The notes below the pieces were generated by a model, which worked only from the letters and a program-made list of their open reading frames with translations, was not told where the DNA came from and did no database searches. A stretch of DNA of 64,000 nucleotides from Chaetoderma sp. LZ-2023a (taxonomy: Eukaryota > Mollusca > Caudofoveata > Chaetodermatida > Chaetodermatidae): NCBI GenBank assembly GCA_034401795.1, contig CM067369.1, positions 140,442,496-140,506,495 on the forward strand, given 5' to 3'. Shown here in pieces: positions 24,883 through 58,527 of the stretch. Numbering within the stretch: the stretch's first letter is position 1; every line of letters begins with the position of its first letter. Made by a program: the position numbers and the translations under genes.

Positions 24883-24964
24883 ATTTATGGCAATAGTCGA
24901 CAGTATTCTCCCGTATATGGTGCCAGCCTGGCATTACACTATGGGTGCCTATACGGGGCTTCAG
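24883..24964 (+). CDS. HECTD4: HECT E3 ubiquitin ligase (HECTD4-like), internal exon b
   Basis: An 82-nt exon between a TGTTGTAG acceptor and a GTAGGA donor. Its first base completes the Arg codon left open by the exon at 21,786-21,954; it then reads 27 codons, including VDSILPYMVPAWHYTMGAYT, and ends on a codon boundary. The phase match and the unbroken hydrophobic, Pro/Trp-containing peptide support a real exon. A second AG upstream (TTTCTTGCAG at about 24,858) would run into a stop in this frame and is not preferred. Confidence 0.75.
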
Positions 24965-38067: not shown

Positions 38068-38144
38068 ACTGTGCGCCAGATTTTGCCATTGTCACAGAAA
38101 AGACTGACTCTGATTGAACTTATTCTCAAGGAGTCTAGCACTGA
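38068..38144 (+). CDS. HECTD4: HECT E3 ubiquitin ligase (HECTD4-like), internal exon c
   Basis: A 77-nt exon with a strong acceptor (TGTGTCTATTTCAG) and a GTATGT donor. It starts on a codon boundary, as the previous exon requires, and reads 25 codons, including TVRQILPLSQKRLTLIELIL. It leaves two bases (GA) that the first base of the exon at 57,289 completes to Glu. The helical, Leu-rich peptide continues the region just before the HECT domain. DIRS element 3 lies in the intron upstream and the 17-kb nested transposon block in the intron downstream. Confidence 0.75.
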
Positions 38145-39718
38145 GTATGTTAAATGTTTGTACGATGTCTTGAATGTCACACAGACACCTTGTAGCTTAA
38201 TCAGTTGAACCTGAAACTCAAAATTCAAAAGATCATTCCAATTTAATTAATATTCTTTAAAATTTTGACAATAATTTAACTGCGAACTGTTGTTGCCTAT
38301 GGTAGCTACAATTTCCTGTCAAATTAGATTCGAAATAGTCAACAACTTAACTGTATAATAATCTTGAAATTAATATTCTTGAATTTCAGTGTTCAAGCAG
38401 TTATAATGGTTAAATTTTGTCAAGAAAATTTCAATTTTCTAATAGACTTACTTTGCGGACCAGGAGAAAACTATTTTCAAAGATTTACAATAAAATAACT
38501 GGTTCGATTATCGAGCTCGCCAATCCAGTGGTAAATTTTCAAAAATAGTCTACAATATCTTAAATCTCACACACAGATATTGTGGTTTTAGACCTTTAAT
38601 GGTCAAATTTGAACAATGGACATTTTTCAAGACCACTGAGGAAGCTGTTTTTGGCTGGTTTGGCCATTAAAGGGTTAATTATTTCGGTCAGTGTTGTGTA
38701 GATGATATTTATCCCCATGCATTTCAAAAGTGAGAGACTGTTTTTCTTGACATCAGTCTATGAATGCAATTAGTAATGGCTGCCATTGCATGATGGGTCT
38801 CTGTTAGTTGGAAAATATTATATTTGACCCTTTAGAGTAATTCAATGTTTTAAAATTAACCCTTTAAGCCTTAAATCTGTTCAATAAAATTTCCATTTTC
38901 TCAAAGAAAATCAATTTGCTGAGCAAAAGAAGACTATTTTTGAAAATTTGTCAGTGGAATGACTGGCTCGGTTATCGAGCCAGTCATTCCAGTGGTAAAT
39001 TTTCAAAAATAGTCTGTTGGTTTGCAAGTGAACATTTCTCAAGACCACTGCATAAGCCATTTTTTGGCTGATATAAGTGTTCAAGGGTTAAGCTCAATCA
39101 TATGCTTACAGAGCGACTTGAAAATTTGAGGATAATTAGACGTAAAGCAGCAACAACTTTCAGTCAATTAGTTTAACATTTTTCAAGAGAATATTTGGGA
39201 CAGCCTAGTGAATGGCATAGCTAGGTATTGTAAAAAATTGCTTAAGTCCTCAAATGCAGGGCTCAAAATAAACCATGTTTACATGTACAGTGATTTGTTG
39301 TTGTGCTGGTAAAATACTTATATTAGATGCACTGTGAACAAATGTATTATGTTTTATTAAGGTTTCATATTTAGTGTTTAATTACCTTAGGCCTAAACCT
39401 CTGGTATTTTAGAATGGTCTTAACTATCAGCACTCACTGTTAAAATAAATAACGTAACAAAAGATTTATTCTGACTACTTTTCTCAGCCTTGATCCACTA
39501 CACAAATATACGCTATTAAGCCTTTAACACTCAAGCCAGCCAAAAATTGCTTCTCAAGTGGTTTTATATGATCTTCTCATAGGGTAGTTTTGAATTGTAG
39601 TTTATAAATAAGCTACCTAGGCAAACAGATTGAAAAAGTTGGCACATGTTTACTCAGAATCCTGCTGGTGAATGACTGAGCTAACAAAGGGATTTTGTGC
39701 TTTTATTGGACATAATAG
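38145..39718 (+). other. Intron 3 of the HECT gene, first part: palindromic repeats
   Basis: It holds a TGTTGAATATTTT-type hairpin at about 38,255-38,345, TTAACCC-family palindromes at 38,395-38,676 and 38,858-39,091, and another decayed hairpin near 39,120-39,190. The remainder up to 39,718 is unassigned and AT-rich. Confidence 0.65.
38858..39091. repeat. Palindromic MITE-like unit (TTAACCC family), best-preserved ends
   Basis: It starts TTAACCCTTTAAG and ends GTTCAAGGGTTAA, an inverted terminal repeat bounded by TTAA. The centre is a near-perfect palindrome: 'gaagactatttttgaaaatt' ... 'ggctcggttatcgagcc' ... 'aaattttcaaaaatagtc'. Length is 234 bp. TTAA borders with CCCTT ends suggest a piggyBac-type MITE; Kolobok also uses TTAA. 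Confidence 0.8.
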
Positions 39719-40029
39719 TCCGTGGGCTGGAGGGGCCCACCTGGATATCCCCCCCCCCCGCCACTAATTGACGAAACTATATTTTTCTAACAGCTTTCGA
39801 TGTCCTCTTTAAGATTATGTATGTTAACATGTGATAAACTGGGACTCAATATGGTTTTTGATGGGTTATGTTAGAGCTAATACCCACAGTGAAGCAGACC
39901 ATATTACGGGTTAGGGGTATTAAAAACTGAACTATCTTTTGATAGAATCGTTGTAGTTTGGTGATCGACCACTCAAAATGTTGCTTATAGTATCGTCTAT
40001 GATTGCATATGGGTTACATGAAAATCAGG
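39719..40029 (+). repeat. Outer part of the left terminal repeat of the long-TIR transposon
   Basis: The reverse complement of about 56,565-56,876 with high identity; the main difference is the length of the C/G run near 39,751. The repeat resumes at 53,004 after the DIRS insertion. Confidence 0.92.
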
Positions 40030-40205
40030 TTCTACTTCGAATAATACTTACCAGATGTACTATTATGATAATGTCTATTATCTAGTCTAGCTCAAAATAA
40101 ACAATTAAAACGCCGCACTCTCCTGGTCCTGCCCATACTGTGTCCGGGAATACCATAGCCGCAGGTACCGAGTCAATTCCCAATCACAGTCAGATTCGTC
40201 TATTT
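40030..40205 (+). repeat. Left inverted terminal repeat of DIRS element 4
   Basis: The reverse complement of about 52,808-52,965. It shares AATACTTACCAGATGTACTA at the tip and the GGTACCGAGTCAATTCCCAA block (on opposite strands) further in. Confidence 0.92.
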
Positions 40206-40792
40206 TGCGCTTTTGAAAAGTCGCTGTTTTTCTAGACCTAGTTAATTGAGCAATAAGGAGTTTAGCGAGCGTATTTTACGTGGTTATCGGTGGACTCATG
40301 GAGGAATTGGGAAAATCATCACAGGGGCAGGTTGTATCAATCTAGAATTTATACATTCATGCCATAATGACTGTTTGAAATTTCCTTAAATTGGCACATT
40401 GTTTTAAAATGTTAGCCATTGTTGGAGTCGCTTCTGTACCCGTTAACTTTTAGTTTAATTTGGGTACTCGGTTAATTTTCTCTTGCGACTCGGTTCCTCT
40501 AAATATGGATGCGCCCTTAGCCAAGATGGCAGCGCCCATGAATTATGTCGTTCTTGGCCTGGTGTGTCTATGCACTCTGTTTATCGCCGATATTAGCTTT
40601 CGCTTCATTGTCGAGGGTGTTTGTAGAGATCGGCGATGTAGCCTTGGTGATTTAACGTTAGTTAAAGGCTGAGTTGTGTGTTTTAAAAAATTTTCACTCA
40701 AAAAAGTTTCAAATATCTCCTGCCTAAGAACTTGATTATCATTAATTTAAGAGAAAGTTAATGTGTTTAAGAAATCTTAACTATCAAGTCGA

Positions 40793-42805
40793 TTGTGCGT
40801 ATTGCTCGTCATCATTTGTCATGTGCAGCGTTTTAATTTTTCCCTGTGTTCGCAGAAACCTAAAAATCTGGATACGTTGTGCCAAAAGTGCAACCGGTTC
40901 ATGAAACGGAAGTATTTGGGACATCACTGCATGGCATGCGCCCAGTGTAAGGTCGGGAGCCCTTGTGATGTGTGTGTGAAGTGGTCGTCGGCAATGGTGG
41001 CAGAGTTCGACAGGGATCGGCGTGCGAGACTGGAGAGGATCGCGAAGGATAAGGCAGCGAAGTTGCAGCAGGCGTCGTTGATGGGACTGGAAGGTCGGCT
41101 GAATGACAGGATGGATTCAGCTCTGGGCGTATGGGCAGCCCAGTTCAAGGCAATGTTTGAATCATTGCAGTCCACGGTCCCGGTGACGCAAGCTGGTGCA
41201 GGACAACCATTAGGTGGTCCGGCTAGTTCTGCTGAGGGTCATGCACCTGCCCCTTCTCTGTCCTTGGCTCAAGAGCCGACGATAGAGGAGGAAGATTTGT
41301 TGCTGATGGAAGATTCCGGCATGCCGGATCTTTCTAAGACGTCAATGCCCGGTACGTCCCAGGGGTCGCTCTCGGGATTAGTACGGGTTTGCCAGGCGGA
41401 CGGTGATGTCGACGTTCCGTCGGGCATTTTCCATCCGCTATTTGTGCAACCGGAGGGGTCAGCAGAGCCGTGTTTTGCGGTTCCTGCTGGTATCCCGGCG
41501 GCGTTAGGTGCGGCTCCTATCGGAATGCCGTCGCCTGCCATAGGTAAAGCGGTCGTGGTCCCGACTCCCGTGCTGGAGCCAACGGACTGCGGAGAATCCG
41601 GGTCTGGCGATTCGTTAGACACCGGTGCCGCTGGTAGTCGCGCTGTGGATGCGCTCTGTCTTGGCAGAGACATGTCTCATAGCGCTCAGCATGGATCGTC
41701 GGTGGCCCTCTCATCTAAGGGAGAGAGGGAGGATGAAAACGGGAGTTCATTGATGGACGAGTCCGTTTTCTGCACCGGAGCTGAATGGGTGCAGGTCCTC
41801 GGATGGATGACCAATCGTCTCGGGTTGGCATCTGATCTGGGATCTCAGCGCGATCCGGCGATGGAGCGGATGTCAGAGCGAGCGGCTAGCGCTCTGTCAA
41901 GTGGCTCTTCTGCCATGCCGACACTCCCGTTGGACACGCAGACTTCTGACATGCTGGAAGTTGCGGCATACCGTCTGGTTCAGCCAGACTATGCATTGCC
42001 AAAGGCCCCGAAGGGGATAAGGAGTAGGGTCCGTTTTCCGGAGCTGGCCTATCATCAGTACGCCCGTGTTCCACGGTTTTCCGTTGCGGAACGAGAGGCT
42101 CTGAATAGGCCGTTGGCTGGGAAAGCTAAGGGGCGGTCGCATCCTTTGGTTTCCCAGACCAACAAAGACCCGTTCAATGAGCTCACGCTCATTGAAGATG
42201 CGGCGAGGGCAGCCATGGCTGCGCTGTCGCACGGGTGTACCGTCCTGCAGGGTATGCTGGACTGCACGGTCCCGGCGTTGTTCGGGACACCATGCGCCTG
42301 TCTCAGGATTGCCAGGGCCAGGGTGTTCACTAGGACATTGGCAGAAAGGCGGAAAATGGTTCTCGATTGTGTAGAACCAGGACCAGAGATGAGGGCTGCA
42401 TTGTCTTCTGCGCCTTTCATAGGTCCAGGCTTGTTCGGCGGCTCGGCACGACAAGCTCTCTCCAAGGTCGCTTCAATGGTTGCAGGACAGGAGGTAGTCG
42501 GCAAGTCGTGGAAGTCGACTAAGAGGACACAGCCGCAGCAGTCCTACAGGCAACATCGCCAGGAGCAGCAACGACAGCGTCCTAGATCGCCCTTCCGTCC
42601 TTCTGGCCGTGATGCCCATACGCCATCCGGATCACAGGGACCTGGCCGTTCATCCTCATACAAGTCCTCTAATAAGAGGCTGTATGAGGAAGACAGGAAG
42701 GGTGGCGGTTCGGGCCGTGGCGGCTACCGTAAGGATAGCCGTGGCGGCGGTTCTGGACCGTCGTACTACAAGAAACCGAGGGGCGGCCGTGGGGCTCGTT
42801 CCTGA
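40793..42805 (+). CDS. gag-like protein of DIRS element 4
   Basis: An open frame of 670 residues. The Cys/His-rich head (CQKC, GHHCMACAQC, CDVCVKW) has the same spacing logic as in element 3, showing this module is conserved across DIRS subfamilies. An acidic Ser/Pro middle and a Gln/Arg/Gly-rich tail (QQQRQRPRSPF, RGGYRKDSRGGGSG) follow. A pyrimidine-rich CTGTGTTCGCAG lies just before the head, again a possible leader splice acceptor. The upstream short frame at 40,460-40,672 is leader sequence. Confidence 0.85.
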   Translation: MCVLLVIICHVQRFNFSLCSQKPKNLDTLCQKCNRFMKRKYLGHHCMACAQCKVGSPCDVCVKWSSAMVAEFDRDRRARLERIAKDKAAKLQQASLMGLEGRLNDRMDSALGVWAAQFKAMFESLQSTVPVTQAGAGQPLGGPASSAEGHAPAPSLSLAQEPTIEEEDLLLMEDSGMPDLSKTSMPGTSQGSLSGLVRVCQADGDVDVPSGIFHPLFVQPEGSAEPCFAVPAGIPAALGAAPIGMPSPAIGKAVVVPTPVLEPTDCGESGSGDSLDTGAAGSRAVDALCLGRDMSHSAQHGSSVALSSKGEREDENGSSLMDESVFCTGAEWVQVLGWMTNRLGLASDLGSQRDPAMERMSERAASALSSGSSAMPTLPLDTQTSDMLEVAAYRLVQPDYALPKAPKGIRSRVRFPELAYHQYARVPRFSVAEREALNRPLAGKAKGRSHPLVSQTNKDPFNELTLIEDAARAAMAALSHGCTVLQGMLDCTVPALFGTPCACLRIARARVFTRTLAERRKMVLDCVEPGPEMRAALSSAPFIGPGLFGGSARQALSKVASMVAGQEVVGKSWKSTKRTQPQQSYRQHRQEQQRQRPRSPFRPSGRDAHTPSGSQGPGRSSSYKSSNKRLYEEDRKGGGSGRGGYRKDSRGGGSGPSYYKKPRGGRGARS

Positions 42806-42829
42806 CGGGTTTCCGGCGGAACCAGTACC

Positions 42830-43608
42830 GGTGGCTTTGGAGGCGAATGGAGTCGAGAATCTTCACCCAAGCGATTTAGCGTCTTATCAGCCAATCTTGA
42901 CCGACAGCTGGGTGCAGATTCCTTCCGTCGGAGGCAGACTTCAGTTATTCCTAAGCCAATGGGAACAGGTCGTGCGCGACTGTTTAGTTTGTCAGTGGAT
43001 AAGAAACGGCTACGATCCGGACTGGCTCATCCATCAATCGTTAGTTCCGTTAACCTCGACTCCAATATGGACTCCTGTTCCAAGGGAATCAGATCGTCTA
43101 GACGCCATTCGGTCAGAAATAGAATCTCTTCGTCAGAAGAAGGCGATTCATCTAGTCAAAGATCAGTCTTCACTGGGCTTCTATTCGATCATGTTCCTCG
43201 TTCCGAAGCGTACCGGAGGATGGAGACCAATTCTCAATCTCAAACCGTTGAACAAATTTATTCTTTCTCCCAAATTTCAGATGGAGACGGTAGCAGCGGT
43301 AATGACAGGGCTGAGGAAAGGCATGTGGGGAGTGTCGATAGATCTGAAGGATGCATATTTTCATATTCCAATGTCAATTCCTTTTCAGAAGTACCTTCGT
43401 TTTGCATTCCAAGACAATGTTTGGGAATTCAATGCTCTCCCGTTTCGGCCTGACCACAGCTCTGAGGGTCTTCACCAAGGTTGTTCTCGCCATAACTTCT
43501 TTACTTCACAGGAGAAACATAGCTGTTCACACGTACATAGACGACTGGCTGCTAAAGGCGGGGAATCCAGTCACTCTGCGCAGCAATCTGCAGGTAGTCC
43601 TAGCCTTA
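42830..43608 (+). pseudogene. Reverse transcriptase of DIRS element 4, part before the insertion
   Basis: Fossil pol part with GGWRPILNLKPLNKFIL, DLKDAYFHIPMSIPF and the catalytic YIDDWLLKA block near 43,537-43,563. It is cut by the TTAA-flanked insertion at 43,613. Confidence 0.85.
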
Positions 43609-44099
43609 TTAACCCTAAGGAACCTACGAGCCGTCTAGACGGCGCGCAAAAAACGTACAAATAAACCTACGAGCCGTCTGGACGGTTTTCAATAATTGGA
43701 CGTAGAGAACTACGCGCCGTCTGGACGGCTTTAAGAGCACCAGTTTTCGATCGCTAAATACGCAAGCATTACGGGCGTTTTATCCAATCAAACTTAGCAT
43801 TACATTACGTCAGATGATTAAATTTTATAAATCCACTGTTGATTGGTCAATTCAGTTTGTTTACAAATTTCTACGGGAAAATATAAATAGTTTTATGTGA
43901 ATGAAATTCCTAGCGTAAAATCGTCAACGATAGCGTGTCGATTCCTTTATTTAACCGAGTACTCGATTCCCTGATGGTCGGAATCGCTTAGTGAGAATAT
44001 CTAACCTAATTTATAATTGCGTCGGTAAAATATTACATACAGCTGAATAGCTACACTGACGCCTACAAGATTTAAAGTGCATCCTTACATAGCTTGCCC

Positions 44100-47000
44100 A
44101 TTAATACCATTATATCACACCCGTCATTTAGCTTCTAGGGAGATATTGGCGTGCGTCTACGGTCTAATTTCTGTTCCTCAATCATCTATCATGATAACGA
44201 ATGTTACTGGGTCAATACGGGCCCGTAACATGCATTATTAAAGTAATGCCAGTCATAAGACAATAGCTTGCTATTATTGCCCTTTGAAATCACCTTTGTT
44301 GACTGTTCCAGTTTTATTTCCGTTTTCTATTGTTCTTTCATCTTATAAATGTTTCTCCTCTTTTTTTCTTCAGGATCATATGGCGAATAGGACAGTTATC
44401 TGGTTGAGATTTCATGAAAATGATGATTCTGTAATCCTATCTTCTGCACTATTTTATTAACCCCTACCATTGTCAAAATTTTAAATTTTCAAATTAAATT
44501 AAAAGAACTGGTGTTCTTGTCTCACCAGATTTGGTGGAAGATGTTGCTGTCGTAGATAGCAACATCATCTACCAAACCAAAGTTGTTAAAAAATGTACAC
44601 TAGTTTCTATTAGTAGAAGTAGAACAGTACCAGTTTTCCAGGCTATTGGCACATTAAAAGATAGAATATTGACATAAGAGTGGTAAGGGTTAAATCTGAT
44701 GCGCTTGATGTAAATCTACTGTACCATTTTATTTCGAATCACTTATTGTATAAGCTGCCATTATAAATTACATGTATGTCAAATACAGTTTCTTCTATGT
44801 AAGAGTGTCATATTACTTAGTAGGACTGGTGATTAAATTGTTGAATATTTTGAGATCGATTGGACTGGAAGATGTTGCTGCATTAGGTGACAACGTGTTC
44901 CAGTGGTAAAGCTTGCGTATTAAATTAAATAATACATGAATACTGTATTATTTGAAAGCTATCAGTGTAAATATCAAATAAAGTTTACTTGAAGTGATAG
45001 GGAGAGAGAGAATCTCGTCTTAGGTAATCAGACTGGACTATGTATAGTAGATTTGTTGAATATATCAAGTCCACTTTGATTGGAAACTGGTGTTGTTTTG
45101 GACAACAATAGATTCCAATTAAATTTGTCAAAATATACTCAACAGATTGTTTCTTTAGATTGCAGGTACTTTTGATCTTTATTGCTATTCATTCCTGGAT
45201 TATTACCCTTGCCCTAAGGGGAAAGAGGGTATTATGTGTGTGCATGCGTCCAGTATTGCATCTAAAAAACTACTGATCCGATTCGTTTAAAATTTTAACA
45301 CACCAAACCAACATAACCTAAACAAGGGTTTCTAGACTTTGGCTGTGATCTGTGTGATCATACATAAAGATTTAACAAATTGGATATGACAAAAACGGTA
45401 GGGTGGTCTCGGCGGTGGTTTACAATCTCCGATTACTCCTGTTCATAATGTTATTTATCAAGCATCAAGTCTTCGACAATGCTGGTAAGTGAGTGATAAC
45501 TAGATTGCTTGGTCGATGACGCATTATAGCAAATCCCCATGCTCACCACTTTGACCTCATTACCCATCCCATCCCTGGGGGCGTATACTCTGCACTCCAT
45601 ACTCACATACCAAATTTGTTTGAATTAGTTTCATTACACAGAGACTGTAGTGGATTGATTTGAAAAATCTGGATGTCATCAGAGGAAGTGATCTGTGAGA
45701 GCAGGAGTTAAAATCAACATGAGCCAGAGGCTAGTAGAAATTGACCAGGGTTAATACAATGACCAGCCCAATGGTAACAATTCATTTGTCAACCCGTTAA
45801 TGGTCATGGTGGTCAATGAATGCCTCTGCAGTGATCTTAAGAAATGTTGATTAGCAGAGCAAGACTTTTTGAAAATTTACCACTAGAATGCTCGGTAATT
45901 GAGCCAGTCATTCCAGTTGTAAAATTTCAAAAATAGTCTTCCCTTGGTCTGTATAGAAAATTTGAAGGGCTAAAGTAGAATCTAGTAATCACTAGTCCTA
46001 TCTGAACGTAGTGGCTCATTTGGCTTAATTTCAATTCATGGAGAGGGTGTCAACTGGTGTGCGAGAGTGGTCTATGAAAAATCCAGAAATCTAGATAAAT
46101 CTGGAAGACTCCAATCTCTGCTTACAATAAATTTCTTGACCTTTTAACCCCTTCTCCAACCCAAAGAAATAAATGTCAGGCAATCCACAATTAATAGGGC
46201 AACCCACACACCAAATTTCTTTGAATTCCACACAACAGTTTGGGAGTAAAATATGAGACATTTTTTTTGGATATTTGAACTTTGGACCCCACCCCTGACC
46301 TTCAGTGGGCGGGGCCAAATCTAAATGTTGTCTTGCAAAGCGCAATCATATGGGTAACCGCCATAACAAATTTGGTTGAAATCGACCCAACTGTTTGGGA
46401 GGAGATAGCATGATGGACATACAGATAAGTGGATGGAGGCAATTATATCCCCATTTTTTCAAAACATGGAGATAATGAATGGACTCAAGGAGACAAGGTA
46501 GGTATGGGGATAATGAATGGACAAGGTTGGTAGGTATAATTAATTCAGTCATCATACTAAAATGTAATTTTCTTTCGGATTGAGAAATTAGGCTACAACC
46601 ATCATTTGCCATGCCACATTGTTTTAAGGACTTGTCACGAAAGGGTTAAACATAGTAAAAACTGGAATTGACAAAAGGAAGGAGAGCAGAAATTTAGATT
46701 TTCTAATGGATAATTTTTTAGCTATGCCCCGCCCATCTCTACATAAGCTCCATCGATGATTTGCGCGTGTTGGGATCAGTTTATATACTTTGAATCCTGA
46801 ATTCCAAATTTCATGGTAACCATAGATACCGCTAACTTGGTGAATATTTTGAAACCAATTTCAAGTACTTTGATTTGACTGAAAGCTGTTGCTGCCCAAC
46901 TCACCAGGTCAGCAAAGGCAAACTAATTCTAAAATATTCACCAGTTTTCCTTTATAAATTTTAATTTTTTCTCATTAAAGTGAGATATGGGCAATTCATC

Positions 47001-47850
47001 TCTTACCTTGATCTTGTGCATGTTACATTGTGTAGATTTCACTCTGCTGTCGCTGCTACTCACATAACAAATTCAGTTGACGTTTTGCCCCTCCCCCATC
47101 AGCCTCTTCCGACCCGAGCAGTGTCACAGCCTAATGTATTAGGTTGTCTCACATTCTACACCCATAGGGCCATGATATGGTAAATCACCAGATTTGGTTA
47201 TATTCCTTTAACAGTCTTCCATCAACCCTACCCCCCCCCCCCCCCCTCTGGGAATGGAGCCTAGTGTAAATGGTATCTCCCAATCCACAAGCATATTGGT
47301 AATTTACACAATAATTTTGATTGAATTCTACCAAAAACTTTCTGAGGAGATGGATGGACAGACAGACAGATGGAGGCGATTGTAATATCCCTGCAGTTTT
47401 TTCAAAACGTGTGGGTATAATTAAGAGATTAAATTTAATTTATTGATATTTGATTCAAATCCCACCCAATCTTAAATGATACATAGAGCTTATGTGAGAT
47501 GCACATTAGCTGAGCGCTCGGGAATACGGTTGATAACAGTCGGCAGTCGATCCAGAACAGCCGCCGGCATAGCTGTCAGCCATTGATGTGTGTAGTAGGT
47601 GATCATGTTTCGAATGTACATCATCATGTTTTAGTTCAAATATACTGTTTCCATACAAAAATTAGATTATAGAGTAACACATGTCATCAAGTTTTTATTT
47701 TTATAAAATCCATGTTAGTAAATCCATTAGGCGTAGCAGGAAAAACTGAGTCCGTTTAGAGTTTAGAAGCCATCGCCCATCAGTCACCTGCAAAAAATAG
47801 GAAGGATAAGTTAGAAATATCCAAATTCTAGAAGTGTTATATTAAGACTT
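44100..47850. other. Interior of the TTAA-flanked insertion: host-like repeat matrix
   Basis: It holds hairpins of the TGTTGAATATTTT family at about 44,475-44,600, 44,838-44,915, 45,055-45,145 and 46,845-46,945, and a TTAACCC-type palindrome at about 45,790-45,975. Two related stretches at about 46,340-46,480 and 47,300-47,420 share 'aggagat', 'gatggaggc' and 'ttttttcaaaac', and a C-run lies near 47,229. Minus-strand frames at 46,091-46,612 resemble no family I know. Confidence 0.55.
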
Positions 47851-48062
47851 TAACAATCAAATTTTTTCATGAAAATTTAAATTTTCTCAGATAATGCCCA
47901 TATGCAGACCAAGAGCAAGTCATTCCAGTGATACATTTTCAAAAATAATCTTACTTTGGTCGGAAAATTTACATTTTCCTCGACAACTGCAGCAGTTTTG
48001 GTCTGACTCAAATGTTAAATGGTTAACAATATACATGTACGGCGCAAGGTCATAGGTATATA

Positions 48063-48185
48063 TAGTCCGAGTCTGCTCTGACTCAACCCGTCCCAGTGAC
48101 AGATATTTGGACAGACTGTCACAGACTGACAGTCTGTCCAAATATCTGTCACAGGGGCAGGTTGAGTCAGAGCAGACTCAGACTA
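48063..48185. repeat. Long near-perfect palindrome, 59-nt arms
   Basis: Arms 48,063-48,121 and 48,127-48,185 with a 5-nt loop CAGAC. The inner 24 bp and outer 20 bp pair without gaps; a few differences lie in the C-rich part between (CCCGTCCCA against its partner). It lies within the TTAA-flanked insertion and is much longer than the MITE-type hairpins nearby. Confidence 0.92.
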
Positions 48186-48499
48186 AGGGATACACTGGTA
48201 AACATTATGACCCGACAACGGGTGTTATGGTCATACACCACCTTCAGATTTTAGCGCATAAATGAAATGAATAATAAAATAAATGGTGGGCATATATCGT
48301 CCAAGGAGGGAGTATGACTACTAGTTACTGGATTAACCTTTTCAATCGACAAGAGCGAATAATAAATTTGCTACGAATGTTTCAAAATTCTGTTGAATAT
48401 TTTGAAACTAATTAAACTGGCTAAGGCAGCACCAGCTTCACATTGGATTCCAAATATTCAACATCTTACATTTACAATGACTGTAAATGTGGAGTTCTG

Positions 48500-49977
48500 G
48501 AATTTCAGGTTCAAATGTGACAATTGTTTTTGATTTTGGCCACCCAAGTTTATTTCAGGGCCCCGGTTCTCTATATCTGTGATCAGAGGATACTGGCCAC
48601 ACAGTAAATGGTGATAGAATGTTTGTAACCAGGGCAATAGTGAAATATTTGTTTTCTAAGGAATTATTAGTAAGTTCCAGTCATCAATGATTATTAGTAA
48701 ATGTGCTGTTACTTGTAAGTTTTCAGTTACTCAATGACTAATTTAACTGAGAAAGTTATAGATTGTGTTAAGAGAGCAGCTGAACCAATAATATATAAAT
48801 CAATTTCGTTTACCTCTGGTCGCGAAATCACAATAAGGTTATAGATAAACAATCCGATAATCTCAATCATCGATGCGTGTCTTTGTTTACAATTTCCGAG
48901 ATAACTTACTCTTCAAATTACTAGCATTAATTAGGCCGAGTTGAGATGCGAAAGTTGTCAAATATATCGGCATCCCACTTCCCGATTGGCAATATCGTTA
49001 ATCTAGTGATCTGTCTACTTCTTAGTTTGTGGCGTACAAGAAATATGCATAGATTGACATATTTGAACACGCAACTATTTTGCAAAACAGCTGATCGTGT
49101 CGCCATCTTGCCGGAAAAATTAATATTCATGTATTCCCGACCAATCAGACGCATCAATCTTATAGTACGTCATACGGTGTTGCCAATAACGGGTAATGAG
49201 CTTGGTACTCGTATTTTAGATACGGGTACAATTCTACAAATTCCTGTCGTTCTCTCGCGATCTTTCACGATAAACGATTCCTATTTGGGACGCCGCTACG
49301 AAAAAATGTCCGATGCTAGAGAATCTTAGTGTAAAACATTCGCGTTCGCTTTTTAAACGGCTGAGTGCACCCAGCAATGCTACATAGCATAAAATTTGCC
49401 ATTTATTCGCTGTCAACGCTGAGAAACTCTGGTATGTGTTCGATTATGTATAAAGGAATTACTCAACATTGAATGAGGCCTCCCCCCCAAAATAATGACC
49501 GGAATTTCTCGAAATTTTACGGTACCATGACATAATATAATTGTCGTTTTCACATCTTATCGGATGAAAACCTTCATGAAACTTTGGTATCTGTTAGTTT
49601 TAATACCATTGTGATTAAATTTATCAATGGCATTTGTAAAATTAAAAAAAACTTCGATAAACTTTGCAAAAATAGACCAATGTATTTATCCTATAAGGTG
49701 TGGCCATTTTGAGAAGCAGGTTGACTAACTAAAATATATTTTATTCATACAAATTTTATATGTACTTAAAGGTATTTTATTGCCCTTTCTAATGATATAT
49801 AGTTTTATATATAGTGATCTGTTACTTTGCCAAAAATAGTTAATACAGTTGGAATGGTAGCACTGCGACGCTATCACTCCATTACCGCTAACAGGCTAGG
49901 TTTCTAAGCAAGTTTCTAGCTTTTGGCTGTAGGGTTTCTAGCACTTTTTTTGTAAATTCTTGGTAGGGCCCAGAGGG
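48500..49977. other. Right part of the TTAA-flanked insertion, unassigned
   Basis: The + strand frame 48,946-49,329 (127 codons) shows no domain I recognise. The last 130 bases hold repeated 'ggtttctaa/gc' motifs before the terminal AGAGGG. No clear repeat otherwise. Confidence 0.45.
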
Positions 49978-49981
49978 TTAA

Positions 49982-51339
49982 AGGATCTAGGGTGGATTGT
50001 GAATCTAGAGAAATCAGAACTGACTCCATCCCAGGAGTTTGTTTATCTGGGAATCTTTTCCAATCTCAGGGATGGCGTAGCATTTCCGGCGGAGAGCAGA
50101 GTCAAAAGCCTGATTGCAGTTTTGGAGTCGGTTTCTCTAGGAGCCTATCTGACGGCGCGCCAGTTTCTCAGGATGCTGGGGTTACTAGTATCTTTAGAGA
50201 AGGTGGTTCCATATGCGGCACTCAGGCCAATTCAGATGTATCTAATGTCATTCTGGTCTCTGAAAACGGATTCGTTATCTCTGAGGATACCAGTAAAAGA
50301 ACAGTTGATATTCCACCTTCAGTGGTGGTTATCGGAACAGAATCTCCTGCGAGGTGTTCCTTTACAACCCCCTCAGCCTCAGATGTCCATCTTCACGGAT
50401 GCATCGTTGACGGGTTGGGGAGCGGTATTGGACAATCAGTCAGTGTCAGGGGAATGGGATCGGACCAATGCGCAGAAACATATCAATGTGCTGGAACTAT
50501 TAGCGGTGGTATTTGCACTTCGAAAGTTCAAGAGTCTAATTCAAGACAAAGTTGTCCTAATAAGGACAGACAACTCAACAGTGGTGTCTTATTTGAACCG
50601 CCAGGGCGGGACGAGATCACCAGAGTTGTGTATGATGGTTTGGAACCTTCTGCTGTGGTGCCAAGAGAGGAATATTATTCTTCGGGCAGCACACATTCCA
50701 GGAAGATTGAACATCCTAGCGGATGCTCTCAGTCGAAGGACGGTTTGTCGTCCGACGGAATGGCAGCTCAACCAATCGGTAGCGGAGGTTCTATTCAAAC
50801 AATGGGGCAAGCCAAATGTGGACCTGTTTGCGATGAATCAAAACGCAAAGATGGTCACTTACGTGTCACCGATCCCGGACCCGCTAGCCTTAGCAGTAGA
50901 CGCACTGGCGATAAGTTGGGAGGGAATGTACGCGTATGCGTACCCTCCAACAATTCTCATCCTGAAAGTTCTGACAAAGATAAGAGAGGGGATGTGCCAA
51001 GTACTACTGATCGCCCCGTATTGGCCAGTCCGATCATGGTTTACGGATCTGCTGGACCTTCTGGTCTGCAATCCAATCTCTCTTCCAGACGCAAGAGATC
51101 TAATCTCTCAGAACAAGGGTCTGTACCTTCACGACAGACCAGAAATGTTCAGATTGACTGCATGGATGTTGTCAAGCAGCGTGCAATTGAGGGTGGCTTT
51201 TCTGAGCAAGCAGCGAAGTTTGTTGCTTCAGCCAGAAGAGTTTCAACCACAAAAACATATAATTATAGAATCAACAAATTTGCACAGTGGTGTGAGAGAG
51301 GAGATATTGATCCCTTTTCTGCATCTGTTCAACACGTAG
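49982..51339 (+). pseudogene. Pol of DIRS element 4, part after the insertion
   Basis: Fossil pol part. The end of the reverse transcriptase (KSELTPSQEFVYLG), RNase H (FTDASLTGWG, HINVLELLAV, RTDNSTVVSYLN, HIPGRLNILADALSR) and the conserved post-RNase H segment (NVDLFAMNQNAK, AVDALAISWEG, YAYPPTILI) are all readable. Confidence 0.87.
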
Positions 51340-52182
51340 CAGATTTTATCTGTCATTTATACGAAGTTGACAAACTTGTACCTTCTACCCTAGCAGCATA
51401 TAAGTCTGCATTAGCTTCAGTCATTCCCCGTCTCACTGTTGGAGGAGTGGAGAATGACACCTTGAATGAAGTTATCAAAGGAATGAGCAATCTGCGACCT
51501 AGACAGCCAATTCCTATTCCATCTTGGAATCTATATCTTGTTCTACAGGTTTTAGGACAGGCTCCTTTTGAACCGATTAGATCTATTGATATTGTTAACT
51601 ATTAAATCAGTTTTCTTGGTTGCAGCAGCGTCGACGAGAAGGAGAAGCGAAATTCATGCGCTTTCTGCCGAACAAGACCGTTTTGTCGTCACGGGTGAAG
51701 GTTTAAGACTACTTCCGCGTCTTTGTTTCCTGGCAAAGAATCAGTCACTTAAATATCCAGGACAGCCGATCAATTTGCCAAGTTTAACTAGACATGACCC
51801 AAACTCTTCTGTTTGGTGTCCTGTTAGATGTCTTAAAATGTATAAGAAACGTACTAATGAGTGGAGAGACGACCCAAAATCTCTGTGGTTATGTCTCAAA
51901 GCTCCCCATTTACGTGCCTCGAAATATACTATTTCTCGTTGGATAGTTGACGCTATTAAGATGTCGCACAAAATCGCTACAGGAAAGCAGATTGATCGTG
52001 CGAATGCCCATCAGGTCCGAGCACTAGCAGCAGCATCGGCCCTTTATAAGGGTGTCTCATTAGAGGAGGTGATGTCTGTAGCACAATGGCATGCCGAGTC
52101 GTCATTCACTGATTTCTACCTTCGCGACATCTCCAGCTCACTTAATCCAGTAGCCATCGCCAATCTGTCGAATCTAAACTAA
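51180..52182 (+). pseudogene. Tyrosine recombinase of DIRS element 4
   Basis: Fossil recombinase. The blocks seen are NLRPRQPIPIPSWN, the catalytic Arg in STRRRSEIHALS, the HxxR block AHQVRA and the Tyr in FTDFYLRDI. Its similarity to element 3 is clear, but it belongs to a different subfamily. It is broken once. Confidence 0.88.
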
Positions 52183-52640
52183 GCCACTTCCGACCACTAC
52201 TTCGCACACATCACTAAAGTCTTCCGCCTACACTGAACAAACGCTATGCACATGACTGAGTACGACCGTGAAAAGATCAAGCACTCAAAATGGTGAGTGT
52301 TTACATTAATTAAGTGGCTATAAATATGTTTACTTACAGTCAAAATACCAGACTGCTTATTTTATACTGGACTGCCCTAGCTGAGACTTGGGTCTGACAC
52401 GGGTCTGGTGGGTGTTGCATCCCCAGTGACAGCCCTCTGAATTTTGTGCGGACAAAAGAGGGGGGGGGGGGAGCGCGGTCTAGACCATGGAAGTTTAGCA
52501 CTATGAGTCAGATAGCAGAACCCAAGCGTATGCCAGGGTTCTAGTCTCTTCACAACCTTCTCTGTTGGATGGTAGTTGAGTGCTGGTTCGAGCCTCACCT
52601 CCTCCCACCGGCATTTTCTGGCTGTCGAAATCTGGAGTTT

Positions 52641-53003
52641 ATCATAATAGTACATCTGGTAAGTATTATTCGAAGTAGAATCAAAAAAGCATCCGCTTTT
52701 TTTTCTACAAGAATTCTTAATACTTACCAGATGTACTATGGCCCTGCCTCAGCCGCCCCGCTGAGGTGAGGCTGAGCTGCTTTCGCAGTTTGCCAATGCA
52801 AACATAAGACGAATCACTGTGATTGGGAATTGACTCGGTACCTGCGGCTATGGTATTCCCGGACACAGTATGGGCAGGACCAGGAGAGTGCGGAGTTTTA
52901 ATTGTTTATTTTGAGCTAGACTAGATAATAGACATTATCATAATAGTACATCTGGTAAGTATTAAGAATTCTCGTAGAAACAAAAGCGGATGCTTTTTTG
53001 ATT
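52641..53003 (+). repeat. Internal complementary region and right inverted repeat of DIRS element 4
   Basis: The stretch 52,641-52,741 is the reverse complement of the left tip followed by that of the right tip (AGTACATCTGGTAAGTATTA ... AATACTTACCAGATGTACTA). The right inverted repeat then runs to about 53,003, where long-TIR transposon sequence resumes with CACAATGAGATC. Confidence 0.92.
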
Positions 53004-53665
53004 CACAATGAGATCTGCAGAGGTCAACAGGTCACAAATCTTCGCCACAGCTTAAAATCTAGCAAGTGTATGTTGCTATCACCGACCAAGCACCTGTAAA
53101 GGAACACTCTAGTTTTAACAGCTTAAGATTGATCAAAAGGCACCATTTGACAAATATAATGAGTAAAAGTTTACTCATTTAACAGAATATTGTTACTATG
53201 ACAACTGACAGCATGTCCAATTTTTGATAATCGATGAAAAATGCATTCATTGTAAATAATTAAGTAGATTTTGATAGAATCGTTGTAGATTGGTGATAGA
53301 CCACTCAAAATGTTGCTTATAGTATCGTCTATGATTGCATATGATTTACATGGAACTCAGTTTCATAATGAGGTCGGCAGAGGTCTAAAGGTAACAAATC
53401 TTCGCCACGGCTTAAAATCTAGCAACTATATGTTGCTGTCACTGACCAAGCACCGGTAAAGGAACATTCTAGTTTTAACAGATTAGGATCGATTAAAAGG
53501 AACCATCTGACAAATATAATGAGTAAAAGTTTACTCATTTAATAAAATAGTGTCACTATGACAACTGACAGCATAGCCAATTTTTGAGAATCGATGAAAA
53601 ATGCAATCATTGTAAGCTAAACTTGAAATGAGCATATCATCGAACCGAAATTGTGTAGAGCAATA
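53004..53665 (+). repeat. Inner part of the left terminal repeat of the long-TIR transposon
   Basis: It matches the reverse complement of about 55,925-56,565. It shows the internal unit twice: AGGTC-containing starts at 53,009 and 53,368 give a period of about 359 bp. Confidence 0.9.
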
Positions 53666-53983
53666 AAAGAGCATTTAAAATGTTTTTATTGTTGCTTGAT
53701 TTACCCACCGACTATAAATCCACTAGCTATATTTGAACTCCTCTTAATTCGTCACTGTCACTATTATCTGCCGAGTCGTCTCAATTTTCGCTATCTTCGT
53801 CAGTGGAACTGTATTCCTGTTTATTCTATTCCTTTTCACATTCCTTCTCTAGAATATTAGCCAACATAGATGGCAGTATCTCACCATCACACCACTTGGC
53901 TCGAGTCACTGTTCACTCTATACAGTCCAGCCATTATTCTCAGTGGGTTCAGGGATGTATGGCTTTGGTACGTGGGCTCGCTT

Positions 53984-55640
53984 TCAAATAGTTACCTGAT
54001 AGTTAACCCTCTTTATGTGCTCGCAGAGGCAAACTCTCGGGGGAGGTAAGGTGGATAAGTCAACGTTTTTCTTGAGATTGATATTTTTCTCTGCATCACC
54101 ACATTTTGCCATTAACATTGAGAAACGAAGTCTGTCAACGTTTGTTATGGGAGTAACCTTGTACAGTCCGCAGGTGAAATCTTCTAATTGAACAAAGAGA
54201 TTCTCTGTGATGTCCCATGGCTCACTAATGGTTGTATCACATTTGGTGAAGGCATGAAAACCCAGAAGGGCAGAACAGTAAAGCGGTGTAAAATTCTTAG
54301 CCCATCTTGAAATGCTTAACAGCTTTCGATTGTTTTCAGAACCAGTATCAAATAATACGCGTGTCTTCATGATTTGGGCATAGTACAGGAGAATTAAAAC
54401 TACATCGCCAGGTCGACTTCTGATACGCACAAAATCATAGCCCATAGTTGTATAAGCACAATAGAGAATAACCCTTAATTGTATCTGTTTCTTCTTGGTC
54501 AGATTCTATGGCTTGTTTTCAAGTTTTTTTTTTTTATTAGTTCAAATAAATCTATATTCCTTTCAAGTCTCTCTGTAATAAAAGTCTCTTTGGCCAGTTT
54601 CCCAAATGACTTGGCAGCCATGATATCGGTTTGGATATGGGTAGGTGCAGGAGCACCAGCCCCAATACAGAACAGCTTATCATTATAATCGAGACTGAAA
54701 GGATTCATGAAGCTTTCTACGGACTCCATTACATTTACAGTGGCTACCTCACTTTTGCGTACCTGTGAAGGACGGACATCCCAATGTCTATTGTTCCTGT
54801 CTGTCTGGTCTGTCATATCTGCCATTTGGAGCATTGTTTCCACATATCTTGCTCGTTCATATACCGTCTCACCAACGTCGATGTGCATCATAGTTATTCA
54901 AGATAACAGATACGCCAGCCACGCTTCCTCCTGCTCATGCATGTGATATTGCGTGCTTCATAAATGTCTTCTCTATTGTTTTGTATACTGCCCCCAAATT
55001 TCCAGGCACAGCAGATCTTGCAAAACTTATAGCACCTATCTTAATCAGCTCTGTTGCTCCGGGGTGCGATTCTTCTTTGCTTGCCAAGAAAACAGAAAAG
55101 TAGGTAAGATACCTTGCATAATTCTGCCCATCAAAACTAAAGAACAGGTCAGCCATTCGATTACGACATGTTCCGTACAAATAGTAATTGTTTGTCTTAA
55201 CTGCATTTAGGAGAGACCACAGCAACCAAACATGGTCCATATAAGATAACCAAAACTGGGCAGTCTTACCTAATTCGCCATTACTCGCAGTCGCAAGTCT
55301 GAGTAGTCATTTAGATATGAATGAAACGCTGTATCATTCGACAATAGTTCGAAATTCTCTTTGGTTCTTACTTCTAATAATGTGGTTACTTTTGCCAATG
55401 AATTTGGTGGCAAATTCTCTAATAATCGGACCCTTTCGTAGAATGGTATTTGTAGAGTAGCAATCGTTCAAGACCTTCAGCCATTGCTTTGTGGCAGTAG
55501 ATGGCCCGACTATAATTCACACCAGACAGCACACCTTTAATAGATCCGGAAGACATCAGGCCAGATTCTAGTAGAATCTCAGTGAATCCAAATCCACTCA
55601 TCTTCTTTCCTATATGATTTTCATATAGGCGCATGCCAAA
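53984..55640 (-). pseudogene. Decayed transposon protein gene (NYARY / FHAFTxCDTT family)
   Basis: Four minus-strand pieces in order: 55,634-55,419, 55,240-54,935, 54,891-54,499 and 54,445-53,984. They lie in different frames with short gaps. Readable motifs are GKTAQFWLSYMD (just upstream of the second piece), FDGQNYARYL, ESHPGATELI, ERARYVETML, ESFMNPFSLDYNDKL, ALLGFHAFTKCDTTISE and HIKRVNYQ. This order matches, from memory, a large unnamed family of repeat-encoded proteins in cnidarians and molluscs, where the GFHAFTGCDT block lies in a PIN-like nuclease-type fold. Frameshifts or stops separate the pieces; introns are the other possibility. Its place between long inverted repeats suggests it was the element's own transposition protein. 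Confidence 0.65.
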
Positions 55641-55924
55641 TGAAATGTACCAATCATAACTATGTGATCCTTGTAGTAGTCTGGACCTTTCCTAAGCTTT
55701 CATACACTCGCCTAGATCAAAGTTCGTTATGGTATATTTCTGCCCAACATCTTCCGATGCCTTTTTGGACATTCTTAGACACTCTTTTACAGTGGCATAT
55801 TCTGTTATTGATCAAATGCTTTCTAATTACATCTTACTTCTTCGATTTTTTACTCCTGATGCTGTATTTGTTGCTTGATTAGCATATAAAGTCCATCTAT
55901 ATCTAAAGCAATTACTTTACACAA

Positions 55925-56876
55925 TTTCGATTCAATGTTATGCTCATTTCATGTTTAGTTTACAATGATTACATTTTTCATCAATTCTAAAAAATTGGCT
56001 GTTCTGTCAGTTGTCATAGTAACAATATTCTATTAAATGAGTAATCTTACTCATTATATTTGTCAAATGGTGCCTTTTGATCAATCTTAAGCTGTTAAAA
56101 CTAGAATGTTCCTCTACTGGTGCTTGGTCGGTGATAGCAACATACAGTTTCTAGATTTTAAGCTGTGGTGAAGATTTGTGACATTTTGACCTCTGCTGAC
56201 CTCATTAAGAAACTGATTTGCATGGAAACCATATGCAATCGTGAACGATACTATAAGCAACATTTTGAGTGGTTGATCACCAATCTACACTGATTCTATA
56301 AAAATCTACTTAATTAGTTTACAATGATTACATTTTTCATCGATTCTCAAAAATGGGCTATTCTGTCAGGTGTCATAGTAACAATATTCTATTAAATGAG
56401 TAATCCTTTACTCATTATATTTGTCAAATGGTGCCTTTTGATCAATCTAAAGCTGTTAAAACTAGAATGTTCCTTTACTGGTGCTTAGTCGGTGATAGCA
56501 ACACACAGTTGTTAGATTTTAAGCTGTGGCGAATATTTGTGACCTTTTGACCTCTGCCGATCTTATTATGAAACCGATTTGCATGTAACCCATATGCAAT
56601 CGTAGACGATACTATAAGCAACGTTTTGAGTGGTCGATCACTAATCTACAATGATTCTATCAAAATATATCTCAGTTTTTAATACCCATACCCCTTAATA
56701 TGGTCTGCTTCACTGTGGGTATTAACTCTAATATAACCCATCAAAACCATATTGAGTCCCAGTTTATCACATGTTAACATACATAATCTTAAAGAGGACA
56801 TCGAAAGCTGTTAGAAAAATATAGTTTTGTCGGGGGGGGGGGGGGTGTATCCAGGTGGGCCCCTCCAGCCCACGGA
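55925..56876 (-). repeat. Right terminal repeat of the long-TIR transposon
   Basis: About 0.95 kb, inverted relative to the left repeat. The two internal units lie at about 55,960-56,310 and 56,320-56,665. A G-run of about 14 (56,832) sits opposite the C-run of the left repeat. Confidence 0.9.
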
Positions 56877-57288
56877 ATACAACATAGGTTCAAATAATAT
56901 AGAGATTACAAACTAAATCTAAAATGGCTTTTATGGTTCTAGTTAGTTAAAAGTGAAATTAGTGTACCATATACACATTATCTAATCCAATTAACTCTTT
57001 AATGACGAAGCACGCCAAAACCGGCCTCCACAGTTGTCCTGGGGAATGCCCATTTGCAGGCCAATAGAAGGCTATTTTTGAAAAATTTGCCAATGAAATG
57101 ACTGACTCGATAACAAAGCCATTCATTCCAGTGGTAAAATTAAAAAAATTACCTGTTGGCGTGAAAATGGCAGTTCAATAAGCAAATTGTTTGATTTTCT
57201 TGACCAAATCTAGCCTTTAATGGCTTAAAGAAGAGTATTAGTCTATGTGACATCACCAATGTGTAATATATGTTGCTATTTTATTCAG
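56877..57288 (+). other. Intron 3 of the HECT gene, last part
   Basis: It holds a decayed TTAACCC-type palindrome at about 56,995-57,228 (TTAACTCTTTAATG ... CTTTAATGGCTTAA, centre 'gactgactcgataacaaagcc'). It then runs into the acceptor TTGCTATTTTATTCAG. Confidence 0.65.
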
Positions 57289-57453
57289 AGCTCCCGCTGA
57301 CATTCCTAAGCTGTACATTAATCGACGTGCAGCCGCTGATCACCGTGATGACCCAACTCATGACCCAGAGTACAAACAAAGTGTATTTGCACAGATATAT
57401 AATGTGCTGAGGACATATGGTCGAGATCGTTATACACAACCATTGGACTACAG
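57289..57453 (+). CDS. HECTD4: HECT E3 ubiquitin ligase (HECTD4-like), internal exon d
   Basis: A 165-nt exon with acceptor TTTTATTCAG and donor GTGAGA. The first base completes the Glu codon left by the exon at 38,068. It then reads 54 codons, including APADIPKLYINRRAAADHRD, DPEYKQSVFAQIY and RYTQPLDY, and leaves AG, which the next exon completes to Arg. The charged DHRDDPTHDPEYK stretch leads directly into the HECT domain in giant HECT ligases of this type. Its intron upstream is 19.1 kb, almost all transposon. Confidence 0.8.
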
Positions 57454-58358: not shown

Positions 58359-58527
58359 ATGGTCAAGTCGACATGAGCAGTGGTGGGAGTGTAAATTCCT
58401 GTCAGAGGGGATCATTGATCAGGGTGGAGGCTTTAGAGACAGTCTATCTGACCTGGCGGAAGAACTGTGTCCAAGCAGTATTGACAGCCAAGTACCATTA
58501 CCATTCTTTGTCAGAGCACCAAACCAG
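58359..58527 (+). CDS. HECTD4: HECT E3 ubiquitin ligase (HECTD4-like), exon e: start of HECT domain
   Basis: A 169-nt exon between TGTATGTAG and GTACAA. Its first base completes Arg with the previous exon, then 56 codons follow: [37 protein letters not shown] and [11 protein letters not shown]. The [13 protein letters not shown] block is the first strand-helix signature of the HECT N-lobe (the GEGxxDxGG region of the family). The protein takes ubiquitin from an E2 onto a C-terminal cysteine; that part is encoded downstream, outside the window. The QWWECKF and PLPFFVR blocks point to HECTD4 rather than HERC2 or UBR5, from memory only. Confidence 0.85.

What the first reader, a model, noticed from the sequence alone, without database searches (positions are those of the whole stretch)
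39719..56876. Three-level transposon nest inside one host intron
A DNA transposon with about 0.93-kb inverted ends (39,719-56,876) contains a DIRS element (40,030-53,003) exactly within its left repeat. That DIRS element contains a TTAA-flanked 6.4-kb insertion (43,613-49,977) within its reverse transcriptase. The right repeat of the outer element shows the uninterrupted sequence ('caaatcggtttcataatgag' on the opposite strand), so the DIRS target site is directly visible. The order of events is therefore fixed: outer element, then DIRS, then the TTAA insertion, all in the intron between HECT exons c and d.
Basis: seen in the sequence. Interest (0 to 1): 0.8.

Follow-up and report, generated by a model that had tools for sequence, protein, structure and literature searches.

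The report
Four jumping genes nested in intron
Inside an intron of an animal HECTD3 gene, four mobile elements sit inside one another like Russian dolls, and related copies elsewhere in the same genome show what each insertion site looked like before it was hit; the nest itself is ordinary genome history, unusually well documented.

Summary
The nest is real, and one level deeper than reported. An old dispersed repeat (~205 bp) was split by a DNA transposon (39,716-56,879; ~0.98-kb inverted ends, 3-bp target duplication). Its left end was split by a DIRS1-like retrotransposon (40,030-53,004; exchange at a TTC trinucleotide). The DIRS reverse transcriptase was split by a 6,365-bp TTAA element (43,613-49,977; piggyBac-like ends, no transposase found).

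Each insertion has pre-insertion sites in paralogous copies: 23 of 40 matches to the outer element's joined flanks cross the joint, three undisturbed copies of the DIRS target lie in the outer element's own repeats, and 19 of 19 fetched DIRS relatives have the single TTAA. Neither composite joint was seen elsewhere among the 40 scored matches of each search, so nesting order most likely is order of arrival. The host gene is HECTD3.

The mechanisms are known; this is a new member of a known kind. Side result: in DIRS relatives the left junction nearly always keeps the element's TTC (29 of 31) while the right often differs (9 of 35). A published DIRS table leans the same way, hinting at one-sided (one-strand) integration.

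The parts
39580..39715 (.). left part of an old dispersed repeat (level 1 of the nest)
   Evidence: joined flanks match 40 other places at 68-87%; 23 of these cross the joint; 11 of 12 fetched relatives align across it, with gaps in several
56883..56950 (.). right part of the same old repeat
39713..39715 (+). left target-site duplication of the outer element, TAA (right copy: CAA)
   Evidence: intact 3-bp duplications TCA, GCC, TTT in three other copies
56880..56882 (+). right target-site duplication of the outer element, CAA
39716..56879 (-). outer DNA transposon (level 2), superfamily not settled; remnant coding region on - strand
   Evidence: long terminal inverted repeats, TAG...CTA ends, 3-bp duplication; 45 matches incl. 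the window, 40 of 1335 candidates scored
39716..40029 (+). outer left inverted repeat, part before the DIRS
53005..53665 (+). outer left inverted repeat, part after the DIRS
55910..56879 (-). outer right inverted repeat (uninterrupted)
55955..56666 (-). two ~361-bp tandem units inside the right inverted repeat; the left repeat has the same pair
   Evidence: TRF; four-unit alignment (88-90% identical pairwise)
53984..55306 (-). remnant coding region of the outer element in three frames
   Evidence: related frames in three other copies; no Pfam match over cut-off
40030..53004 (+). DIRS1-like retrotransposon (level 3) with TTC at both ends
40042..40208 (+). DIRS left inverted terminal repeat
   Evidence: 97% to 52,798-52,964
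52798..52964 (-). DIRS right inverted terminal repeat
52639..52739 (+). internal complementary region; overlap 52,678-52,680 is the 3-bp circular junction (GAA = TTC on the other strand)
   Evidence: matches left end 42/42 and right end 60/62
40781..42805 (+). DIRS gag-like open frame, 674 codons (named by position only)
   Evidence: no Pfam match
42498..43612 (+). DIRS reverse transcriptase, part before the TTAA insert
   Evidence: RVT_1 E = 1.2e-7
49978..51339 (+). DIRS reverse transcriptase end, RNase H and Dam-like region
   Evidence: RT_RNaseH E = 3.1e-9, Dam 0.01 below cut-off
51556..52182 (+). DIRS tyrosine-recombinase region
   Evidence: Phage_integrase E = 0.028, below cut-off
43613..49977 (+). 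TTAA element (level 4), 6,365 bp, CCCT...AGGG ends, no transposase found
   Evidence: TTAA at 20 of 20 left ends and 12 of 12 right ends read, window included; six frames without Pfam match
43609..43612 (+). TTAA target duplication, left
49978..49981 (+). TTAA target duplication, right
53361..53364 (+). undisturbed copy of the DIRS target (TTTC) in the second tandem unit of the left repeat
56570..56573 (-). undisturbed copy of the DIRS target in the right repeat, unit 1
56209..56212 (-). undisturbed copy of the DIRS target in the right repeat, unit 2
24883..24964 (+). HECTD3 exon upstream of the nest (match to chain positions 412-442), AG/GT borders
57289..57453 (+). HECTD3 exon downstream of the nest (match to chain positions 470-522), AG/GT borders

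Best explanation
A four-level nest made by successive insertions in one intron of the host HECTD3 gene. An old ~205-bp dispersed repeat was already there. A DNA transposon with ~0.98-kb inverted ends inserted into it by ordinary cut-and-paste, duplicating 3 bp. A DIRS1-like retrotransposon then inserted in the left inverted repeat: reverse-transcribed copy, circle with a TTC junction, tyrosine-recombinase exchange with a genomic TTC, no target duplication. Last, a 6.4-kb element without a transposase of its own inserted at a TTAA in the DIRS reverse transcriptase, most likely moved in trans by one of the genome's many piggyBac-type transposases. Shown: junction anatomy, family membership, pre-insertion sites, and that each composite joint is found once among the scored matches. 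Inferred from the known families: the enzymes and intermediates.
For: Outer: arms 876/976 identical; 3-bp duplications TCA, GCC, TTT in three complete copies and TAA/CAA here; 23 of 40 non-window matches cross the joined flanks, 11 of 12 fetched ones align across. DIRS: inverted ends plus complementary region with 3-bp overlap; circular junction TTC in 18 of 18 relatives, left trinucleotide TTC in 29 of 31, right in 26 of 35; three paralogous empty sites TTTC. TTAA element: 20 of 20 left and 12 of 12 right ends at TTAA; 18 of 28 paired copies 6.25-6.40 kb long; 19 of 19 fetched DIRS relatives have the single TTAA, and 17 of 19 go on at 183-187 of 190 identical bases. Order: outer right arm plus interior carry more private change (100/3156) than the DIRS (9/925), p = 1e-4; each composite joint found once among 40 scored matches. 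119 matches to the piggyBac-type transposase domain in the genome.
Against: DIRS and TTAA element are not separated in age by private changes (p = 0.47). The outer 3-bp duplication is imperfect here (TAA/CAA) and the right end has ATA for CTA; at the joint the window lacks roughly 10-25 bp that several relatives of the old repeat have, so that empty site is less exact than the other two. The private-change rates rest on different numbers of relatives (three for the outer interior, 17-19 for DIRS and TTAA element). Only the best 40 of 1,434 and 1,523 candidates were scored. No autonomous partner of the TTAA element was identified. No empty allele was seen: the joined-flank search found no second copy of this locus among its 40 scored candidates of 219.
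Confidence: 0.94

Rival explanations
1. The DIRS element already carried the TTAA insert when it retrotransposed here, so two levels arrived as one.
For: Private divergence does not separate the two (9/925 against 27/1988, p = 0.47).
Against: Retrotransposition leaves the donor; a 200-bp query across the joint is matched in full only here, while 20 other matches hold only the TTAA-element half and 19 only the DIRS half (40 of 1,434 candidates scored). An interrupted reverse transcriptase and a 13-kb RNA would need help in trans (inference).
Confidence: 0.03
2. The outer transposon moved into the intron with the DIRS already inside its left end.
For: Cut-and-paste leaves no donor, so absence of a second joint does not exclude it.
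Against: A 17-kb cargo with an interrupted end is an unlikely substrate (inference); the outer copy has about three times the private change of the DIRS; no other copy of the joint among 40 scored matches.
Confidence: 0.04
3. The nest is an assembly artefact that joins unrelated repeat copies.
For: The pieces are high-copy families, the usual cause of mis-joins.
Against: Each joint falls at the biological end of its family with the expected target signature, and target sequence resumes in register on the other side; the contig is 278 Mb long.
Confidence: 0.01

Closest known systems
DIRS1-like retrotransposons (DIRS order)
   Same: inverted terminal repeats, internal complementary region with a 3-bp circular junction, RT and RNase H, insertion without target duplication (definition as in PMC3266345, passages and section 10 read)
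   Different: circular junction TTC; TTC does not occur as a whole word in the main text of PMC3266345, which reports NTT at both ends for 23 of its 28 elements; this copy is interrupted by a TTAA insert
piggyBac superfamily
   Same: TTAA duplication and ends starting CCCT (PMC10813416, passages read, lists CACTA, CCCTC, CCCTT and CCCAT as end motifs)
   Different: 6.4 kb without any recognisable transposase; 15-bp ends only 11/15 alike
AcademX lineage of Academ DNA transposons
   Same: 3- or 4-bp target duplication (PMC10045372, passage read); a motif resembling XPG nucleases is recalled from memory
   Different: no nuclease or transposase domain recognised in the window or one relative, no related PDB chain; 0.98-kb inverted repeats with internal duplication
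Nested transposons used as genome stratigraphy (REANNOTATE, PMC2672092; search listing with the start of the abstract only)
   Same: order of events read from nesting
   Different: here each level is also backed by paralogous pre-insertion sites

Membership tests
DIRS1-like retrotransposon | inverted terminal repeats | tested here: met
   40,042-40,208 / 52,798-52,964, 97%
DIRS1-like retrotransposon | internal complementary region with 3-bp circular junction | tested here: met
   52,639-52,739 matches left end 42/42 and right end 60/62, overlap TTC; TTC in 18 of 18 relatives examined
DIRS1-like retrotransposon | RT and RNase H domains | tested here: met
   RVT_1 1.2e-7, RT_RNaseH 3.1e-9, both over cut-off
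DIRS1-like retrotransposon | methyltransferase domain | tested here: inconclusive
   Pfam Dam E = 0.01, below its cut-off
DIRS1-like retrotransposon | tyrosine recombinase | tested here: inconclusive
   Phage_integrase E = 0.028, below its cut-off
DIRS1-like retrotransposon | no target-site duplication beyond the trinucleotide | tested here: met
   filled against three empty paralogous sites
piggyBac superfamily (non-autonomous) | TTAA target duplication | tested here: met
   20/20 left, 12/12 right ends; 19/19 fetched empty sites have one TTAA
piggyBac superfamily (non-autonomous) | ends beginning CCC with short inverted repeats | tested here: met
   CCCTAAGG... and CCCTCTGG..., 11 of 15 alike; against: the best local alignment of the two 400-bp ends is not above shuffles
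piggyBac superfamily (non-autonomous) | DDE transposase (DDE_Tnp_1_7) | tested here: not met
   no Pfam match in six frames; so not an autonomous member
AcademX | 3- or 4-bp target duplication | tested here: met
   TCA, GCC, TTT in three complete copies
AcademX | transposase with XPG-like nuclease domain | tested here: not met
Not filed as AcademX

The most novel reading that the evidence does not exclude
DIRS integration is one-sided. The left junction keeps the element's own core trinucleotide and the right junction takes the target's, as expected if only one strand of the circle is exchanged (or heteroduplex is always resolved the same way). The target then needs only a partial match, here a final C. 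Support: of 31 complete junction pairs in this family, 22 are TTC/TTC, 7 are TTC/other and 2 are other/TTC; right cores are NNC in 35 of 35. In the published table of 28 DIRS elements, of 8 with unequal ends and a 3-bp junction, 7 have the start equal to the circular junction and 1 the end (my count). Weak points: left-against-right p is only 0.049, the nest's own DIRS is TTC/TTC and so uninformative, and no orthologous empty site was available.
Probability: 0.3. Interest if true: 0.55.

Novelty: new member of a known kind. Interest (0 to 1): 0.35.

Why it matters
The nest is a clean, internally controlled record: each insertion can be checked against undisturbed copies of its own target in the same genome, so target signatures and order are read directly instead of assumed. 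The families behind it are useful for open questions. The DIRS family has many young copies whose paired junctions allow the tyrosine-recombinase integration step, in the paper read here a proposed model, to be tested statistically. The TTAA family is a large (6.4 kb), recently spread element in which no enzyme gene was found.

Tried and rejected
Looked for a fifth level inside the TTAA element (palindrome 48,063-48,185, MITE-like 45,827-45,951). Rejected: one relative (L078) aligns throughout 45,513-49,981 at 98.4%, palindrome included, and 6,365 bp is close to the commonest length. Suspected a hot spot because L026 has a flank ending like the DIRS site; rejected, its flank gave no DIRS match. 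Of 20 TTAA-element copies, the window, L020 (97% to this DIRS) and L010 (82%) lie in this DIRS family or a near relative, at different places; L019 has matches to the other DIRS family; abundance is enough to explain this. Naming the outer element: Pfam, PDB and a viral-contig scan gave nothing usable; structure prediction unavailable. Dating the TTAA element against the DIRS by private changes failed to separate them. Rfam found nothing at its gathering thresholds in the window. An autonomous partner for the TTAA element was not identified; none of the listed transposase matches lies within about 10 kb of a listed end pair, judged by eye. Paper PMC10294476 (passages) was read for Academ and not used.

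Rows dropped or special: L058 and L063 left out of the RT divergence set (indels); L016 aligns badly from 500 bp inward (789 of 1,397 sites differ) but stayed among the 20 rows that set the majority; L005 taken as a duplicate of L004; L042 (DIRS copies head to tail) and the window not used for junction pairs; C366, C1324 and C1506 skipped as apparent duplicates of C802, C2429 and C1995; left ends not found for the copies of L032, L128, L132 and L142. Some counted places may still be duplicates (C806/C371 among the 28 lengths; C11:47,646,462 and 47,776,665 among the 23 of 40). Relatives were picked by similarity to the window, which lowers its apparent private change; right-end copies were picked by right-end score, which under-samples non-TTC right ends and may favour the final C. 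The outer age test pooled right arm and interior; the left arm (51/951) was not pooled.
Full report
THE PLACE. The window is position 140,442,496-140,506,495 of a 278-Mb contig (C11) in a 2.44-Gb genome of 2,753 contigs. It carries exons of HECTD3. Translated pieces match the solved HECTD3 (PDB 9r85, chain positions) at 348-418 (4.3e-8), 412-442 (2.5e-4), 470-522 (4.1e-10) and 521-579 (1.4e-26). With AG/GT borders these give exons 21,786-21,954, 24,883-24,964, 57,289-57,453 and 58,359-58,527. The nest lies between the second and third. Positions 443-469 were not located: three frames of 24,972-30,673 gave no match, and 37,723-39,715 and 56,883-57,288 were not searched in this way, so a small exon in between is not excluded.

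LEVEL 2, THE OUTER TRANSPOSON. The two arms align with 876 of 976 ungapped columns identical once the DIRS is skipped. Each arm holds two ~361-bp tandem units. The genome search lists 39 other arms of 920 bp or more at 89-93% identity (40 of 1,335 candidates scored), and the 2.25-kb interior is 92.6-94.0% alike in three other copies. Of 11 distinct other arm ends read, 10 carry TAG/CTA outside the TCC/GGA; the exception is L049 (TAA). The element therefore begins TAG and ends CTA. Three copies with both ends readable have 3-bp duplications outside that: TCA, GCC and TTT. In the window the right end reads ATA and the duplication TAA/CAA, two single changes. The interior keeps fragments of a gene in three frames on the - strand, likewise spread over several frames in three relatives. 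Pfam gave nothing over a cut-off and PDB nothing related. The 3-bp duplication fits AcademX (PMC10045372, passage), but the defining enzyme was not found, so it is left unclassified.

LEVEL 1, THE OLDER REPEAT. Joining 160 bp from each side of the outer element and searching the genome gave the two window halves plus 40 other matches at 68-87%; by my count of the listing 23 of these 40 cross the joint. Of 12 fetched, 11 align across it, several with gaps there, and one only on both sides separately. The window reads ...GACATAA / CAACATAGG...; two of the 12 read GACAATAGG exactly, three more differ by one base and two by two, which fits a CAA target with one changed left base but does not prove it. 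Some relatives stand as inverted pairs about 560-640 bp apart. The outer element therefore has paralogous pre-insertion sites too, and the nest has four levels.

LEVEL 3, THE DIRS. The element 40,030-53,004 has inverted ends, an internal complementary region matching the left end 42/42 and the right end 60/62 with the overlap TTC, and RT and RNase H domains. The methyltransferase- and recombinase-like matches are below Pfam's cut-offs; a second DIRS in the window (33,728-35,968) gives RVT_1 3.4e-22. The pre-insertion sequence is present three times in the outer element (53,361-53,364, 56,209-56,212, 56,570-56,573), each reading TTTC; the filled site reads ...cagg-TTC...TTC-acaatgag. In relatives the circular junction is TTC in 18 of 18 examined. 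The RT also appears to change frame between about 43.46 and 43.50 kb, independently of the insert, and the recombinase region is split over two frames near 51.6 kb (read by eye). The joint outer/DIRS is matched in full only here among 40 scored of 1,523 candidates.

LEVEL 4, THE TTAA ELEMENT. All 20 left ends and all 12 right ends read in the genome abut TTAA, with CCCTAAGG and AGAGGG termini; both sets include the window copy. Of 28 copies whose two ends I could pair, 18 are 6.25-6.40 kb long. Six frames have no Pfam match. The longest listed frame, 132 codons, recurs in two relatives and had no Pfam match. The genome has 119 matches to the piggyBac-type transposase domain, many with open frames over 500 codons, so movement in trans is plausible but not shown. 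The empty site is plain: the 19 places that hold only the DIRS half were all fetched, and 19 of 19 read ...CTTATTAA-AGGATCTA...; 17 of them go on at 183-187 of 190 identical bases (149 and 98 in the other two). By the way they were chosen they could not carry this joint; what they show is the intact site. The DIRS/TTAA-element joint is matched in full only here among 40 scored of 1,434 candidates; 20 others hold the TTAA-element half and 19 the DIRS half.

ORDER AND AGE. Private changes against the majority of relatives: outer right arm 31/943, left arm 51/951, interior 69/2213; DIRS 6/636 and 3/289; TTAA element 5/500 and 22/1488. Outer (right arm plus interior) against DIRS p = 1e-4; TTAA element against DIRS p = 0.47, with the TTAA element nominally the higher. 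Divergence thus supports the outer element being older, but is silent on the last two, where the nesting and the joint seen only once carry the argument.

A POINT ABOUT DIRS INTEGRATION. Junctions of relatives (35 right ends, 31 left ends, 31 complete pairs, window not counted) show left TTC in 29 of 31 (others TTT, TTG) and right TTC in 26 of 35 (GTC 5, TGC, TCC, AAC, GAC 1 each), Fisher p = 0.049. Complete pairs with unequal ends: 7 with the left equal to the core, 2 with the right. The right third base is C in 35 of 35. In Table 3 of PMC3266345 (section 10 read), of 8 elements with unequal ends and a 3-bp junction, 7 have the start equal to the junction and 1 the end; two more with a 2-bp junction were set aside. 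The left keeping the element's core and the right taking the target's is what exchange of a single strand would give. Biased resolution of heteroduplex would give the same, and the two left-end exceptions may be later mutations. In a search of the held library for DIRS with circular junction, tyrosine recombinase, target site and trinucleotide (at least four of the five), only that paper held the term circular junction among the four listed.

VERDICT. Each step is the textbook behaviour of a known kind of element. The value lies in the completeness of the internal controls and in the families that the nest led to.

Noticed in passing
window 1-7,912; 14,161-20,653; 30,675-37,722: Three further DIRS elements of another family (the first is cut by the window edge), coding on the + strand like the focal DIRS and the gene; the third keeps three long stop-free frames of 714, 746 and 989 codons.
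   Followed up: partly
L042 (G000:C9:1,078,089-1,078,733): A DIRS right end runs straight into a DIRS left end with one TTC between: head-to-tail copies, as expected from insertion at, or integration of, a circle junction.
   Followed up: no
L032 (G000:C7:82,065,627): The focal DIRS family lies next to sequence like the 3' region of the other DIRS family, at a GTC: another DIRS-in-DIRS nest.
   Followed up: no
window 43,613-49,977 and relatives L010-L028, L080-L090: A 6.4-kb TTAA family without recognisable transposase, over 1,000 first-look candidates, the 40 scored at each end 97-99% alike: long and young for a non-autonomous DNA transposon.
   Followed up: partly
G000:C14:102,861,690-102,874,824 and C12:131,418,556-131,431,908: Two TTAA-element copies with ends about 13.1-13.4 kb apart, so probably themselves carrying a ~7-kb insert.
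   Followed up: no
window 52,183-52,364: The stretch just after the recombinase frame matches most listed relatives at only 82-84% while the next 640 bp is 97-98% alike; against L076 the window lacks about 29 and 128 bp here. Deletions or a mosaic copy.
   Followed up: partly
window 59,989-60,852: Ten tandem 86-bp units, 98% alike, in the intron after the exon at 58.4 kb.
   Followed up: no
window 23,066-23,231; 38,928-39,091; 45,827-45,951; 57,031-57,159: A short repeat, partly palindromic, in several introns, in the TTAA element and in flanks of some of its relatives.
   Followed up: no
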